Positions 33,227 to 38,262 of a stretch of DNA of 64,000 bases are shown here, piece by piece; the stretch's first letter is position 1, and each line of letters begins with the position of its first letter. Source of the stretch: Fulvivirga lutea. GTDB lineage: Bacteria; Bacteroidota; Bacteroidia; Cytophagales; Cyclobacteriaceae. Where the stretch lies: positions 3,904,501 through 3,968,500 of the forward strand of contig NZ_CP070608.1 in the NCBI RefSeq assembly GCF_017068455.1, given 5' to 3'. Made by a program: the position numbers and the translations under genes. The notes below the pieces were generated by a model. That model was given only the letters and a program-made list of their open reading frames with translations. It searched no databases and had not been told where the DNA came from.

Positions 33227-33892
33227 TTATTTTGATGTCCTTAAAATATCCGAAGGCTTGAGAATATTTTTCTCATAACCTGAGCGAGTAACATTTATCA
33301 TTGATTGCCCTAGCTGAGTTGTATTTACTATCGATTTAGGGAATAAAAACTTTAGCAGCTTTATCAGCCACATAAAGTAATCGTAGAAGAACTGGTACAA
33401 TCGGGTGCCGGACTTAATTCCTTTGAGCGGGATAATTGCACCGGGCCTGTACATAAATGCTTGTTTGAAACCCATATTGAGTAGGTCATTTTCAGTTTTA
33501 CCCTTTACTCGTGCCCACATAGTTCTGCCTTTCTCAGAGCTATCAGTACCTTGACCTGACACATATGTAATTGTCATATTGGCATTATGATTATATAAGA
33601 CTTTGGCCAAGGCTAATGTGTAATCATAGGTTATTTCTTTGTACTTGGCTTCACTCAACCCCGCTGCACTAATACCCATGCAAAGATATGCTGCATCATA
33701 TCCAGCTAATTGATCTTTTATAGAATCATAGTTTCCGAAATCCTGGTGGATGATCTCCTTGATCTTTTCGTGTTTTATACTTATCTGCCTACGGTTTATT
33801 AGCAACACTTCGGAGATTTCAGGGTGATCAAGACATTCTAAAAGAACCCCTTTACCTACCATACCTGTTGCACCTGTTATAATAACTTTCAT
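33227..33892 (-). CDS. NAD(P)-binding Rossmann protein (HTATIP2/YwnB-like oxidoreductase)
   Basis: 221 residues. It opens with the dinucleotide-binding loop TGATGMVGKGVLLECL and has LLINRRQIS, DAAYLCMGISAAG, and YVSGQGTD where extended SDR proteins place their active-site serine. A C-terminal lobe (FMYRPGAIIPLKG) follows. It belongs to the atypical short-chain NAD(P)-binding proteins. It follows a classical SDR gene by 5 bases and so is controlled with it by the TetR twin operator upstream. Substrate unknown. Confidence 0.87.
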   Translation of the reverse strand: MKVIITGATGMVGKGVLLECLDHPEISEVLLINRRQISIKHEKIKEIIHQDFGNYDSIKDQLAGYDAAYLCMGISAAGLSEAKYKEITYDYTLALAKVLYNHNANMTITYVSGQGTDSSEKGRTMWARVKGKTENDLLNMGFKQAFMYRPGAIIPLKGIKSGTRLYQFFYDYFMWLIKLLKFLFPKSIVNTTQLGQSMINVTRSGYEKNILKPSDILRTSK

Positions 33893-33897
33893 AGTTT

Positions 33898-34719
33898 CTA
33901 TTTTATATTTTTCTCGGTTACCATCCTAACCATTGCAAAAAACCAATTGTTGGGTAGCACTCGCTTTAAGAATAAAAGAAATGGTGCTCCACTACCTACA
34001 GGATATCTCATCTTATAGCCACTGTCTGTTGCTGCTTTATAAATCTTTTTAGCTACGACAATAGGTCCTGGTGCATTTGCCCCAACCTTTTGCATGGTAT
34101 TAAAGGTACCATTTACATATTTGTCATATTCCTCAAGATTCTCCGCTTTCATTAAATCCATTGACCTGTCATAAAAATCTGTTTTTATGGCGCCTGGTTC
34201 TATCAATTTAACTTTAATGCCAAACTGTTTCAATTCATAATGCAACGATTCGGAAAATCCTTCAACGGCCCATTTTGTGCCATGATACAAACTATAAAGA
34301 GGGAAGGTAATTCTGCCACCAACTGACGCTATATTGATTACAATTCCGGCCTTATTCTTTCTAAAATGAGGTAGTATCGCCCTGGTCACGTTCATTAAAC
34401 CAAATACATTGGTATCGAACTGTCTTCTAATCTGTTCGTTTGTTGATGCCTCGAAAGCACCTACCAAACCATAACCTGCATTGTTCACTAATACATCAAT
34501 TTGTCCAAAGTCAGAAATGGCCGCATCGATCGCGCTATCGATAGATTGTTGATCAGTTACATCCAATTTGTACAAATGAACATTTTCCATTTTGGCCAGA
34601 TCCTCATACTTCTCCGGACTACGCATGGTGGCGGCTACATTCCAGCCCTTTTTCTGGAAATATTCTGTTGTACTTCTTCCAATTCCTGATGATGCACCTG
34701 TAATAAATATTGTTTTCAT
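33898..34719 (-). CDS. Short-chain dehydrogenase/reductase (classical SDR)
   Basis: 273 residues with all classical SDR landmarks: TGASSGIGRST, NNAGYGLVG, the serine in NIASVGGRI, and the catalytic YHGTK. After the fold come about 85 residues ending in a weakly hydrophobic, basic tail (FLLFLKRVLPNNWFFAMVR) that could touch the membrane. It is the first gene of the unit downstream of the TetR gene. A copy of the TetR operator sits 9 bases upstream of its start codon. The substrate is unknown, perhaps a lipid or a toxic carbonyl. Confidence 0.92.
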   Translation of the reverse strand: MKTIFITGASSGIGRSTTEYFQKKGWNVAATMRSPEKYEDLAKMENVHLYKLDVTDQQSIDSAIDAAISDFGQIDVLVNNAGYGLVGAFEASTNEQIRRQFDTNVFGLMNVTRAILPHFRKNKAGIVINIASVGGRITFPLYSLYHGTKWAVEGFSESLHYELKQFGIKVKLIEPGAIKTDFYDRSMDLMKAENLEEYDKYVNGTFNTMQKVGANAPGPIVVAKKIYKAATDSGYKMRYPVGSGAPFLLFLKRVLPNNWFFAMVRMVTEKNIK

Positions 34720-34727
34720 AATTTTAT

Positions 34728-34743
34728 GTGAGTACTTACTTAC
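34728..34743. promoter_or_regulatory. Predicted TetR operator, copy 2 (before the SDR gene)
   Basis: GTGAGTACTTACTTAC differs by one base from the copy at 35292-35307, an imperfect inverted repeat with half-site GTnAGTA. It lies 8 bases upstream of the SDR start codon, where bound repressor would block initiation of the SDR unit. Confidence 0.65.
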
Positions 34744-34759
34744 TTGTTCTTTAAATTTT

Positions 34760-35287
34760 TTATTCCTGATATTTTATTAATAAAAATTCGATCATATTTT
34801 CCATATCAAAATTGTCTGATAAGAAATAGCGAGTAGCTAAGCCATCTAATAACAATAGTAAAATATCAGCTTCCTGTTCTGGGTTCTGATAGCCTAGTTT
34901 TTCAAACGCAGTAGTTAAAGCATTTCTGATGGGCTCCATTTTTTTTTCATCATACAATTCTGTTTCCCACTTTAATTTGTATTGTAATTTCCAGAAATGT
35001 GATTGCTCACTATCCATAGCAATTTCTGAAGCAATTCTAAACGTTTTGTTGATTACTTCCTGTGGGTCTGATTCCATTACTATATTGGCAAAAAGCACCT
35101 TAAGTCTTGATTCGCCTTCTTTAGAAATTGCTTCTAAAAGACCCTCCTTATTAGTAAAATGCCTGAAAATCAACCCTTCCGAAACACCTGCCTTTTTAGC
35201 TATTTTACTGGTAGAGGTTGATCCATACCCTTCTTCAGCAAACAGCTCTAATGCTGCATTTAATATTTTTTCTTGTTTCTCAGTCAT
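34760..35287 (-). CDS. TetR/AcrR-family transcriptional repressor
   Basis: 175 residues. The N-terminal helix-turn-helix is typical: LFAEEGYGSTSTSKIAKKAG then SEGLIFRHFTNKEGLLEAI. The C-terminal 110 residues form the helical ligand-binding and dimerisation domain. It lies 40 bases upstream of the SDR gene on the same strand, and near-identical 16-base operators precede both itself and the SDR gene. This gives a simple model in which it represses itself and the SDR/NAD-binding pair until an unknown ligand appears. Confidence 0.94.
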   Translation of the reverse strand: MTEKQEKILNAALELFAEEGYGSTSTSKIAKKAGVSEGLIFRHFTNKEGLLEAISKEGESRLKVLFANIVMESDPQEVINKTFRIASEIAMDSEQSHFWKLQYKLKWETELYDEKKMEPIRNALTTAFEKLGYQNPEQEADILLLLLDGLATRYFLSDNFDMENMIEFLLIKYQE

Positions 35288-35291
35288 GTTA

Positions 35292-35307
35292 GTGAGTAAT
35301 TACTTAC
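35292..35307. promoter_or_regulatory. Predicted TetR operator, copy 1 (autoregulation)
   Basis: GTGAGTAATTACTTAC is a 16-bp palindrome with only two mismatched base pairs. It sits between the TetR start codon (35287) and its -7 element, touching the latter by one base, the position at which a repressor shuts off its own promoter. Confidence 0.7.
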
Positions 35308-35338
35308 AAAGTAATAACAAGAATGGTTCATTTCCAAA
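35307..35338 (-). promoter_or_regulatory. Promoter of the TetR gene
   Basis: On the minus strand: TTTG (35335-35338), 20 bases, then TTACTTTG (35307-35314), matching the Bacteroidota consensus in all but one position. The operator copy 1 begins at its downstream edge. Confidence 0.55.
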
Positions 35339-35358: not shown

Positions 35359-36630
35359 TTACTCATCAAGGATTTCAATCTCCACACGCACATTCTGTTT
35401 GGCCTTGGTGCTGTGTTTATCGTGGAGCATTCTATTACCGCCCCAGGCTTTTATCTCCATCCGATCTTCTGAAATTCCTTTACTTACTAAGTAATCTCGA
35501 ATGGTTTCTGCTCGCTCTTTCGACAGCTTCTTCGCACTTCCAAAACCTTTAGGGTTGTCATTGCTCAAGTTAAAAAACTGATCATCGATCACAGAAATTA
35601 TAGGTCCGGCATGTTTACCATTTACATGGCCATGTATTTTAATACGCATGTTTTTGTTCTCTTGCAGCATATCGAGCAAGCTATTAACTTCATACTTAGA
35701 TTCTGGTCGCATAACTGCTGCATCTTTATAGTAAAAAACATTATACATAGTTATGATGTCGCCTTTACGGTAGCGCACCAAATCAAAATTGAGCACTAAT
35801 CCATTTTCCGTTGAATCTATTTCTGCATTGGTTGTGCCATTTATTGGATCGTAATAGTTGAACTCTTTCTGTACTTTCCTAAACCCAAATACATCAACTA
35901 TGACGGTAATCTGACCAGAGCCATTCTTAGGATCGTCTACATGAACATGATGACCTGACTCTACAACGTCCATTAGCTTCGAACGTTCTGTATCTATTAT
36001 TTGAAGCTCTCCTTTTACTTCACTTCCGTCAGTTGAATTTGTCAGCTCGAACTTAACTTCCAGTCGATCATCTTTTTCAACAGCAATTTCCTCTTTCTCT
36101 ACTTCTGATATACTCTCCTCTTCAGCTTTAGGTTTTTCAGTTACTTCTTCTTTCTTTTTCTTAGGTACTTCTTCCTCTTCTGGCTCATCCTTTTCTACAT
36201 TCTTGAATCGCTCGGCATATAGATCACCCAGTGGATTAACCACTTCCTTCTTTAGTGCTTGAGTTGTTTCTTCAGCTCTTTTTTGTTCTTCAGGAGATAG
36301 TTGCAATCGGGCTTCTGAAGTCTTAACATGCACCCAGGAATCTCCAAAGCCTTCCTTTGTTCTCATCTCCTTCATTTTAGCTATGGCTTCCTTAAAACTC
36401 TCAGTATGATCTACATAAACATAAATCAACGAACCTCGCTCATTTAGACCAAAACGAGCATCATAACCTTCATTACTTACCTGTTTCGTAAATTTAACAG
36501 CTAATTCAACCTGGCTTTTGGCGTAGGCCCCAACAACGATGGCATAGCCTTGGGGAATATCTTTGGTTTGTGAGTATAAACTCTGGGCTAGTGATGTAAA
36601 AACTATAAGAAAAAGTGAAAGGAGTCTCAT
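35359..36630 (-). CDS. SPOR-like/OmpA-family outer-membrane protein (copy 2)
   Basis: 423 residues. A signal peptide (ends at SLYSQ) is followed by a SPOR-like repeat (about 25-105, GYAIVVGAYAKSQVELAVKF) and a Glu/Lys-rich linker (about 115-195). A beta-rich region comes next, then a C-terminal OmpA/MotB domain (about 300-423) with MRIKIHGHVNG and SKERAETIRDYLVSKGI, ending KQNVRVEIEILDE. The OmpA part binds peptidoglycan non-covalently and the SPOR-like part may bind denuded glycan strands. It is a paralogue of the adjacent upstream gene, 16 bases away. Confidence 0.88.
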   Translation of the reverse strand: MRLLSLFLIVFTSLAQSLYSQTKDIPQGYAIVVGAYAKSQVELAVKFTKQVSNEGYDARFGLNERGSLIYVYVDHTESFKEAIAKMKEMRTKEGFGDSWVHVKTSEARLQLSPEEQKRAEETTQALKKEVVNPLGDLYAERFKNVEKDEPEEEEVPKKKKEEVTEKPKAEEESISEVEKEEIAVEKDDRLEVKFELTNSTDGSEVKGELQIIDTERSKLMDVVESGHHVHVDDPKNGSGQITVIVDVFGFRKVQKEFNYYDPINGTTNAEIDSTENGLVLNFDLVRYRKGDIITMYNVFYYKDAAVMRPESKYEVNSLLDMLQENKNMRIKIHGHVNGKHAGPIISVIDDQFFNLSNDNPKGFGSAKKLSKERAETIRDYLVSKGISEDRMEIKAWGGNRMLHDKHSTKAKQNVRVEIEILDE

Positions 36631-36646
36631 TTATCAAATATGGTAA

Positions 36647-37873
36647 TTATTCTTCCAAAATTTCAATCTCAACTCGCACATTCTTCTCAGCCGATGAACT
36701 ATGCTTATCATAAAGCATCTTTTTACCACCCCATCCTTTTATCTCCATACGATCTTCTTCAATGCCTTGATCCATTAACCAATGCTGGATAGTGTAAGCT
36801 CTATACTCTGACAGTTTCTTCGCACTGGCTTTAGTTTCTAAGTGTGAACCATTTAAACTAAAGAACTTCTTATCGTCTAAATCCAAATGCTTAACCACAC
36901 CATGCGAATTACCATTAGTATGACCATGAATCGCTATTCTCATATTGTCATTTTCCTGCATCATATTGAGTAATTGGTTCAATTCAGTAATTGATTCTTC
37001 TCTCATGATAGCCGCATCTATATAGAAATATACATTCCACATAGTCATATAATCACCTTTATTATAACGCCTTAAGGGCATATCAACGATAATACTGTCA
37101 CCAATGGTTGTTACGTGCTCTTTGTCTTTTGAAGTTTCAGGCTCATCCAGGTCCACCTGCCTGTTCACTATTCTGTATCCGAAAATGTCCGTTTCAAAAT
37201 TGACTTTTCGTGTACCATTATTAGGGTCATCCATTTCCACCAATTCCTGTGTTGGCAGTTTTCCTAAATCCTTCTGTCTTTCAATATCAGTGGTTTTAAC
37301 ACTTCCTTTTACTTCGTGTAAGTCAGTTACATCATAGGTATTAAAATAGACCCAAAACTTATCGTCAGGCTTTACTCTTACTGGTTCCTCATTCTGAGCC
37401 ACCATCTCCTCAGTCATTTCATTTTGCATATTGGCCTGACGTGCTTCCCGCTCTAATTCAGCCTCTTCAACATCATGCACAAGTTTCTCCAAATCATTTC
37501 CTCCAGAATTTGAAGCGACATTTTGCTGCTTTAATTGATCGGACGGTATGTGAAGGCAATTGAAATTACCATTATACAACCATGTTTTTCCTAACGCAGA
37601 AAATTGCTCGCGTATAGATAATACCCTACTTCTGGCTTCTTCTACATCGCTGGACTCATGCACGTATACATAGTGAAGGTTATTGAAATTATTTTCACGT
37701 ACACTTGTCTTTAAGCCTTTAGTTGCATAAAAATCGGCAAACCTTTGGGCATTCGATTCCAAATTAAAGACACCTATTACTGCATAACTTTTTACATTGT
37801 CAGGAATCTGTGCAAGAGCTGTAGTAACAGTGAAAAATAAAATAACAATTAATGATTTTCGGAAAGTATTCAT
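36647..37873 (-). CDS. SPOR-like/OmpA-family outer-membrane protein (copy 1)
   Basis: 408 residues from the ATG at 37873, chosen over upstream starts because MNTFRKSLIVILFF begins a proper signal peptide (ending LAQ). The order matches its neighbour: SPOR-like region (VKSYAVIGVFNLESNAQRF), acidic linker, a beta-rich middle (RKVNFETDIFGYRIVNRQ) and an OmpA domain (MRIAIHGHTNG, SEYRAYTIQHWLMDQGI, EKNVRVEIEILEE). The two copies are colinear along their length and share the KAWGG/KGWGG and KMLYDKHSS-type motifs, so they arose by tandem duplication. Confidence 0.88.
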   Translation of the reverse strand: MNTFRKSLIVILFFTVTTALAQIPDNVKSYAVIGVFNLESNAQRFADFYATKGLKTSVRENNFNNLHYVYVHESSDVEEARSRVLSIREQFSALGKTWLYNGNFNCLHIPSDQLKQQNVASNSGGNDLEKLVHDVEEAELEREARQANMQNEMTEEMVAQNEEPVRVKPDDKFWVYFNTYDVTDLHEVKGSVKTTDIERQKDLGKLPTQELVEMDDPNNGTRKVNFETDIFGYRIVNRQVDLDEPETSKDKEHVTTIGDSIIVDMPLRRYNKGDYMTMWNVYFYIDAAIMREESITELNQLLNMMQENDNMRIAIHGHTNGNSHGVVKHLDLDDKKFFSLNGSHLETKASAKKLSEYRAYTIQHWLMDQGIEEDRMEIKGWGGKKMLYDKHSSSAEKNVRVEIEILEE

Positions 37874-38262
37874 GGCGTTAAAGTCTAAAAAATTGATGGT
37901 GTTGAGCCTGTTGAATACACAGCCTTGGCAAATTAAAATAGTTACCAACCCAACAAAAAAACCAAATTATTCCCCTGAGCCTGAATGGAATCAAGCACTG
38001 GTAAGTTGATCTCACTATGCTATAATCAGCTAGCATATTAAAAAAATGATAGTAAAAGTTTAAAAAATTAACTCCGAAATGTAAATATTTAAAGTAATCA
38101 AAACAAAGAAAATATAGTAAGTTCTTCAATTTCAGCTATTTAGGTGTTTTAAATATTATTTTATTTAGAATTTTTTTAATTATATAAATCAATAAATAAT
38201 TAAAATGAGCCTTTTTAGACCATAATACCTTTCCTTAACTTTGATAAATTTTAATCAGCTCT
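37874..38262. other. AT-rich intergenic region, no gene seen
   Basis: 389 bases between the divergent OmpA-type gene and a lipoprotein gene. The right half is almost pure A/T. A perfect -7 match (TAACTTTG, 38236-38243) lies 19 bases before the lipoprotein start, with no -33 partner. A weaker minus-strand element (TTAATTTG, 37929-37936) could serve the OmpA-type genes. I see no RNA gene or repeat. Confidence 0.6.

What the first reader, a model, noticed from the sequence alone, without database searches (positions are those of the whole stretch)
34728..35338. TetR regulator with near-identical twin operators
GTGAGTAATTACTTAC (before the TetR gene) and GTGAGTACTTACTTAC (before the SDR gene) agree at 15 of 16 bases and are palindromic apart from two mismatched pairs. 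The first lies directly downstream of the -7 element of a good TetR promoter; the second lies 8 bases before the SDR start. Together they predict autoregulation plus control of the SDR/NAD-binding pair.
Basis: partly seen in the sequence, partly recalled or inferred. Interest (0 to 1): 0.6.

Follow-up and report, generated by a model that had tools for sequence, protein, structure and literature searches.

The report
Self-flanked TetR repressor with twin operators
A bacterial repressor gene is bracketed by two nearly identical DNA sites, one on its own promoter and one in the gap before the enzyme genes behind it, and the same pair recurs around its close relatives in other Bacteroidota, so the sites are very probably its real binding sites.

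Summary
GTGAGTAATTACTTAC (35292-35307) and GTGAGTACTTACTTAC (34728-34743) are the only exact copies of GTGAGTAMTTACTTAC in the 4.14 Mb genome. The pair is conserved: of the 80 closest relatives kept (of 324) from named genomes, 79 carry the 16-mer (at least 14 of 16 positions) within 60 bp before the TetR start and 74 (at least 13 of 16) within 100 bp after the TetR stop. Of 22 hand-picked genomes without a close orthologue, none has a perfect match.

Site 1 begins on the last G of a TAnnTTTG promoter box (exact box in 78 of 95 distinct loci; 84 of 102 with repeats, 6.0 expected by shuffling), so autorepression is well supported. Site 2 lies at no recognisable promoter (1 of 95). Its spacing follows the TetR stop codon (16-18 bp in 56 of 74) while the gene behind it varies. 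A new variant of a known kind: a local TetR autorepressor.

The parts
35292..35307 (-). Operator 1 (GTAAGTAATTACTCAC on the minus strand), predicted to cover about -5 to +11 of the tetR transcript
   Evidence: conserved upstream in 79 of 80 named loci; -12 to -5 place of the promoter box from PMC9723704 passages
34728..34743 (-). Operator 2 (GTAAGTAAGTACTCAC on the minus strand), in the tetR-SDR intercistronic gap
   Evidence: present after the TetR stop in 74 of 80 named loci at >=13/16; no TAnnTTTG box above chance
35307..35314 (-). -7 element TTACTTTG (TAnnTTTG, one mismatch), sharing its last G with operator 1
   Evidence: logo over 95 loci
35335..35338 (-). -33 element TTTG, 20 bp before the -7 box
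   Evidence: T, T, G are the commonest letters at about this place in the logo
34760..35287 (-). tetR: 175-aa TetR-family regulator
   Evidence: Pfam TetR_N 1.6e-20; all-helical AlphaFold2 model, pLDDT 91.5
34753..34759 (-). AAAATTT tract directly after the TetR stop; a similar tract recurs in relatives, role unknown
   Evidence: AAATTT within 25 nt of the stop in 55 of 80 loci
33898..34719 (-). Short-chain dehydrogenase (SDR), first gene after operator 2
   Evidence: Pfam adh_short 6e-51
33227..33892 (-). NAD(P)-binding Epimerase-fold protein, second gene
   Evidence: Pfam Epimerase 1.4e-6; homologue downstream on the same strand in 41 of 80 loci

Best explanation
The TetR protein represses its own operon (tetR-SDR-NAD-binding) by binding two copies of a GTRAGTRA-TYACTYAC-type operator. 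At site 1 the dimer covers the last base of the -7 box and the start of the transcript and blocks initiation (position shown; binding inferred). At site 2, between the tetR stop and the enzyme genes, the same protein blocks polymerase that has escaped and already copied tetR, so leak transcription refills the repressor but seldom reaches the enzymes (roadblock inferred). An unknown ligand releases it from both sites (inferred from the family). The regulator is local: in this genome the sites occur only at its own gene.
For: Two exact sites in the genome. Site 1 in 79 of 80 and site 2 in 74 of 80 of the nearest named relatives, labelled Cytophagales, Bacteroidales, Marinilabiliales, Flavobacteriales, Saprospirales, Chitinophagales and one Balneolaceae MAG, some without an order label. 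In 20 of 21 orthologue-bearing genomes every perfect match lies at the tetR locus; 0 of 22 genomes without a close orthologue have one. None of 21 more distant TetR loci (L016-L036) has a site of >=14/16 (best 13). Site 1 lies on a TTG-N19-TAnnTTTG promoter; site 2 does not. Stop-to-site-2 spacing is 16-18 bp in 56 of 74 while the cargo varies: short-chain dehydrogenase in 52 of 77 first downstream genes, epimerase/HSD-like, metallo-hydrolase-fold or other in the rest. L067, sister of the window's TetR in the tree, has a homologue of the NAD-binding gene directly behind site 2 without the SDR, at the same 16-bp spacing. Precedents in passages: QacR at -6 to +21, RolR and AtsR roadblocks (PMC9210681), Bm3R1 roadblock (PMC3814354).
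Against: No binding, transcript or ligand data. A roadblock and a DNA loop both fit. Promoters that do not match TAnnTTTG would escape. At least five relatives show no clear site 2 (L015, L051, L052; L112, L133), so it is not needed everywhere. Of 15 TetRs at 36-43% identity (L049, L050, L053-L065), 7 have no site >=14/16 and 8 have sites only well upstream of TetR, some 360-550 bp where measured. In G090 a near-copy of the site stands before an ArsR-type gene and one more lies elsewhere.
Confidence: 0.55

Rival explanations
1. Site 2 is the operator of a separate SDR promoter lying in the 3' end of tetR or the gap.
For: Site 2 lies 8 bases before the SDR ATG; an A/T tract often precedes it.
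Against: Perfect TAnnTTTG in 1 of 102 regions of 60 bp after the stop (2.2 expected) and 1 of 102 regions of 63 bp around the stop (3.6 expected), against 84 of 102 at site 1 (6.0 expected; base shuffles); TTG plus box in 6 of 102 against 5 of 102 in a coding control. The 102 include 7 repeats; 95 distinct loci give 78 at site 1, and 1 in each of the two site-2 regions.
Confidence: 0.15
2. The two operators, about 560 bp apart, are bridged by a pair of TetR dimers into a repression loop.
For: Both sites are kept together in most of the relatives examined; spacing is 555-572 bp in 75 of 85 loci.
Against: No helical phasing of the spacing in 85 loci: mean vector 0.09-0.12 for periods 10.3-10.7, Rayleigh p 0.28-0.52; a near-constant distance already follows from the near-constant gene length; looping is not usual for TetR-family dimers (recalled).
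Confidence: 0.15
3. Site 2 acts in the mRNA (hairpin or translation control of the downstream gene), not as DNA.
For: If tetR and SDR are one transcript, it is transcribed and lies near the start codon.
Against: The commonest letters at pair 3/14 are A and C and at pair 8/9 A and G, which do not pair; it shares its letters with site 1, which would be only partly transcribed.
Confidence: 0.04
4. The sites belong to a different regulator and only happen to flank tetR.
For: In one genome (G090, L146) two similar repeats precede an ArsR-type gene rather than a tetR.
Against: Presence tracks this TetR clade: 0 of 22 hand-picked genomes without a close orthologue have a perfect site, and 21 more distant TetR loci lack it.
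Confidence: 0.05

Closest known systems
TetR of the tetracycline-resistance systems
   Same: A TetR repressor with two identical operators that controls its own gene and a neighbour (PMC9210681 passage).
   Different: There the two operators are 11 bp apart at the tetA and tetR promoters (same passage); here they flank the regulator gene, about 560 bp apart, and the second has no recognisable promoter.
QacR, RolR, AtsR, Bm3R1
   Same: TetR-family repressors acting at or behind the transcription start; roadblock stated or proposed for RolR, AtsR and Bm3R1 (passages).
   Different: In those passages one operator or motif is named for each; here a second copy sits behind the regulator gene.
FadR of Bacillus and relatives (TetR family, fatty-acyl-CoA)
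   Same: FadR-type chains fill many of the 50 listed best PDB fold matches, TM-score 0.65-0.76 on the query.
   Different: 19-24% identity in those rows; NCBIfam FadR model 46.5 bits against a cut-off of 200; ligand unknown here.
SlmA (nucleoid occlusion factor)
   Same: Similar half-site: SlmA consensus GTGAGTACTCAC (PMC3116907 passage); profile match to SlmA chains at E 3.4e-12.
   Different: 16-bp site with a 4-bp longer centre; no exact SlmA 12-mer in this genome against 50 in E. coli K-12; SlmA model 29 bits against a cut-off of 120.
LacI O3 roadblock on lacI
   Same: A repressor that roadblocks its own transcription at an operator (start of the abstract of PMC3711431 in a search listing).
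   Different: Different family (recalled); there the block limits the repressor, here site 2 would limit the genes behind the repressor.

Membership tests
TetR/AcrR family regulator | N-terminal TetR_N helix-turn-helix domain | tested here: met
   PF00440 1.6e-20, 73 bits against cut-off 24, residues 8-54
TetR/AcrR family regulator | All-helical fold with helical C-terminal domain | tested here: met
   Nine helices, pLDDT 91.5; TetR-family regulators fill the best PDB matches listed
TetR/AcrR family regulator | Palindromic operator overlapping its own promoter | tested here: met
   (position and conservation, not binding)
TetR/AcrR family regulator | Dimeric binding released by a ligand | not testable with these tools
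   needs protein
SlmA | Reaches the curated SlmA score | tested here: not met
   NF007015 29 bits against 120
SlmA | Many dispersed GTGAGTACTCAC sites (50 in E. coli K-12) | tested here: not met
   0 exact copies of GTGAGTACTCAC in the genome
Bacillus FadR | Reaches the curated FadR score | tested here: not met
   NF053878 46.5 bits against 200
Bacillus FadR | Binds long-chain acyl-CoA | not testable with these tools
   needs protein
Roadblock repressor (works like RolR/AtsR) | Operator behind the transcription start, away from a promoter | tested here: met
   site 2: TAnnTTTG in 1 of 102 after the stop, 2.2 expected
Roadblock repressor (works like RolR/AtsR) | Bound repressor stops elongating polymerase | not testable with these tools
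   needs transcript measurements

The most novel reading that the evidence does not exclude
A widespread, exchangeable control module of Bacteroidota: a repressor gene that carries both of its operators, one on its promoter and one tied at a near-fixed distance to its own stop codon, so that whatever oxidoreductase genes come to lie behind it fall under two-gate control (initiation plus elongation roadblock) that keeps the repressor topped up while the cargo stays off.
Probability: 0.4. Interest if true: 0.6.

Novelty: new variant of a known kind. Interest (0 to 1): 0.45.

Why it matters
It gives a TetR that matches no NCBIfam model above its cut-off, and dozens of its relatives, a binding site that can be predicted from sequence, with a promoter architecture (operator fused to TAnnTTTG) that can be used directly for reporters in a phylum with few regulator-operator pairs (recalled). 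The promoterless second operator poses a clean, testable question: does a native TetR family use a built-in roadblock to separate repressor expression from cargo expression?

Tried and rejected
Looping by helical phasing: no signal. Internal promoter at site 2: no box above chance. SlmA or FadR membership: below curated scores, although fold and half-site are close. Print: GTAAGTGATTACTCAC and five related strings gave 6 papers, all on animal-cell or animal-host subjects by their listed titles and abstract starts; topic searches showed no listed title or abstract start on this regulator. One search listed 10 of 37 papers and 10 of 39. Passages were read in PMC3116907, PMC9723704, PMC9210681, PMC3814354 and PMC9953421; no paper was read whole. 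Most subscription journals are not held.

Selection to bear in mind. The 80 named loci are the best 80 of 324 relatives, so the rates hold for the nearest kin. The consensus letters came from the window plus hand-picked loci; 7 of the 80 are the same loci as ones in that set. After removing repeats 96 loci remain of 103, 95 with site 1 at >=14/16 and 86 with site 2 at >=13/16. One search scanned 59 loci L007-L065 with a slightly narrower consensus; rescored with the final one: the 23 kept for all have a site >=15; L016-L036 (21) have none >=14 (three reach 13); of the other 15, L054-L058 and L062-L064 (8) have one at 14-16 well upstream of TetR and 7 have none >=14. In one search the 21 positive genomes were chosen because their tetR locus was known to carry a site, so only the absence elsewhere in them, and 0 of 22 in the others, is evidence; the 22 were hand-picked as lacking a close hit; the backward control pattern gave 4 matches in 3 of the 43 genomes. 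Misses: site 1 L091; site 2 L104, L107, L112, L127, L133, L139. Read by eye, L104, L107 and L127 have a site-like stretch overlapping the TetR stop codon, L139 has a broken TetR frame, L112 and L133 show none. The first-gene cargo scan used 76 of 80 loci plus the window (L104 dropped by me; L105, L134, L138 had no same-strand ORF of 80 aa next in line); the second-gene scan used 55 of the 58 loci available plus the window (L104, L123, L126 dropped). ORFs were called mechanically. In one search, 10 of 80 loci had under 3 kb of downstream flank.

Full report
What is there. On the minus strand the window holds tetR (34760-35287, 175 aa), an SDR gene (33898-34719) and an NAD(P)-binding Epimerase-fold gene (33227-33892), in that order and direction. 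The 16-mers of the finding lie 4 bases before the tetR ATG (35292-35307) and between the tetR stop and the SDR ATG (34728-34743), 8 bases before the latter. They differ at one base. Site 1 has one unpaired palindrome position pair, site 2 has two.

Chance. In the window the pair is the only one at one mismatch among 350 palindromic 16-mers. In the 4,137,993-base genome GTGAGTAMTTACTTAC has exactly two exact matches; the other rows have two mismatches, where a backward-read control is as frequent. The wider GTRAGTRAKYACTYAC with one mismatch allowed still hits only these two places, although the control pattern also gives three matches at that laxity and none at zero mismatches.

Conservation. 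Relatives (about 38-66% identical) were found in the family and order and, by profile, in named genomes (324 relatives, best 80 kept). Of these 80, 79 have the 16-mer at >=14 of 16 positions within 60 bp before the TetR start, and 67 at >=14 (74 at >=13) within 100 bp after the TetR stop; three of the six misses have a site-like stretch overlapping the stop codon (by eye). In 43 hand-picked genomes, perfect matches occur in 21 of 21 with the orthologue (chosen for that) and in 0 of 22 without a close one; in 20 of the 21 all perfect matches lie at the tetR locus, the exception being G090 with two further places. More distant TetR loci L016-L036 have none at >=14 of 16 (21 loci). The operator thus travels with this TetR clade; its edge, at about 36-43% identity, is ragged. 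The TetR tree mixes orders (19 label changes where 7 is the least possible; shuffled mean 35.4), and the window's two congeners in the samples lack a close orthologue, which suggests transfer or repeated loss but does not prove it.

Promoter anatomy. Over 95 loci site 1 is preceded by TTG, about 19 bp, and TAnnTTTG whose G is the first base of the operator. Exact TAnnTTTG is present in 84 of 102 site-1 regions against 6.0 expected from base shuffles, 78 of 95 after removing repeats. In Flavobacterium psychrophilum this box spans -12 to -5 (PMC9723704 passages), so operator 1 would cover roughly -5 to +11. In the window the box is TTACTTTG, one mismatch, with TTTG 20 bp upstream. The site-2 regions show no such box above chance (1 of 102; 2.2 and 3.6 expected in the two regions tried; 1 of 95 distinct). 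Site 2 has its own letter preferences (G at position 9 in 65% of the loci in the logo) and often an A/T tract between stop and site (AAATTT in 55 of 80). The G at position 9 creates an overlapping 12-mer of SlmA type, GTRAGTACTYAC (read from the logo); whether this means a second binding register is open.

Cargo. The first gene behind site 2 is a short-chain dehydrogenase in 52 of 77 scanned (76 loci plus the window); others match Epimerase/3-beta-HSD, metallo-beta-lactamase-fold, metallophosphatase and single other families. Homologues of the window's SDR lie downstream on the same strand in 56 of 80 loci, of its NAD-binding protein in 41, of both in 31 (SDR homology is broad and 10 loci have short flanks). 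Stop-to-site-2 spacing is 16-18 bp in 56 of 74 loci, whereas the distance from site 2 to the first mechanical ORF start varies widely. L067 (Fulvivirga lutimaris), the sister row in the tree, has a homologue of the NAD-binding gene directly behind site 2 at the same spacing. Site 2 thus looks attached to the regulator rather than to one cargo.

Mechanism. Shown: position, rarity, conservation, co-occurrence, promoter overlap at site 1, lack of a standard box at site 2. Inferred: binding by this TetR, single operon, roadblock at site 2, ligand release. Looping is not excluded but gets no support from phasing. The roadblock has precedents in the family (RolR, AtsR: PMC9210681 passages; Bm3R1: PMC3814354 passages), and operators at the start have QacR. 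The predicted fold is a normal TetR fold with many FadR-type chains among its nearest PDB matches, which hints at, but does not show, a lipid-like ligand.

Verdict. A correct and well-chosen observation. The autoregulation half is well supported by comparison; the second site is real but probably not a promoter operator. Ordinary in kind (TetR autorepressor), unusual in its conserved, regulator-bound second operator.

Noticed in passing
   Followed up: partly
L054, L055, L057, L058, L062-L064: In one related family 36-39% identical TetRs have a tandem pair of similar sites 24-25 bp apart, some 360-550 bp upstream of the TetR start instead of next to it; the gene they control is unclear.
   Followed up: partly
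window 34753-34759 and the same place in relatives: An A/T tract directly after the TetR stop recurs (AAATTT in 55 of 80 loci) at a near-fixed distance from site 2; role unknown.
   Followed up: partly
window 35359-37948: Two adjacent OmpA-domain genes of similar length (423 and 433 aa) lie upstream of tetR on the same strand and may be a tandem duplication; not compared with each other.
   Followed up: no
L081: A contig filed under Thalassobius (Pseudomonadota) carries a TetR that falls among Bacteroidota in the tree, with both sites, and its tetR locus is identical to L037 from a genome of the window's order; a binning or labelling error is likely.
   Followed up: partly
L139:4001-4318: The TetR reading frame is cut by a stop at 105 aa while site 1 is intact.
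   Followed up: no
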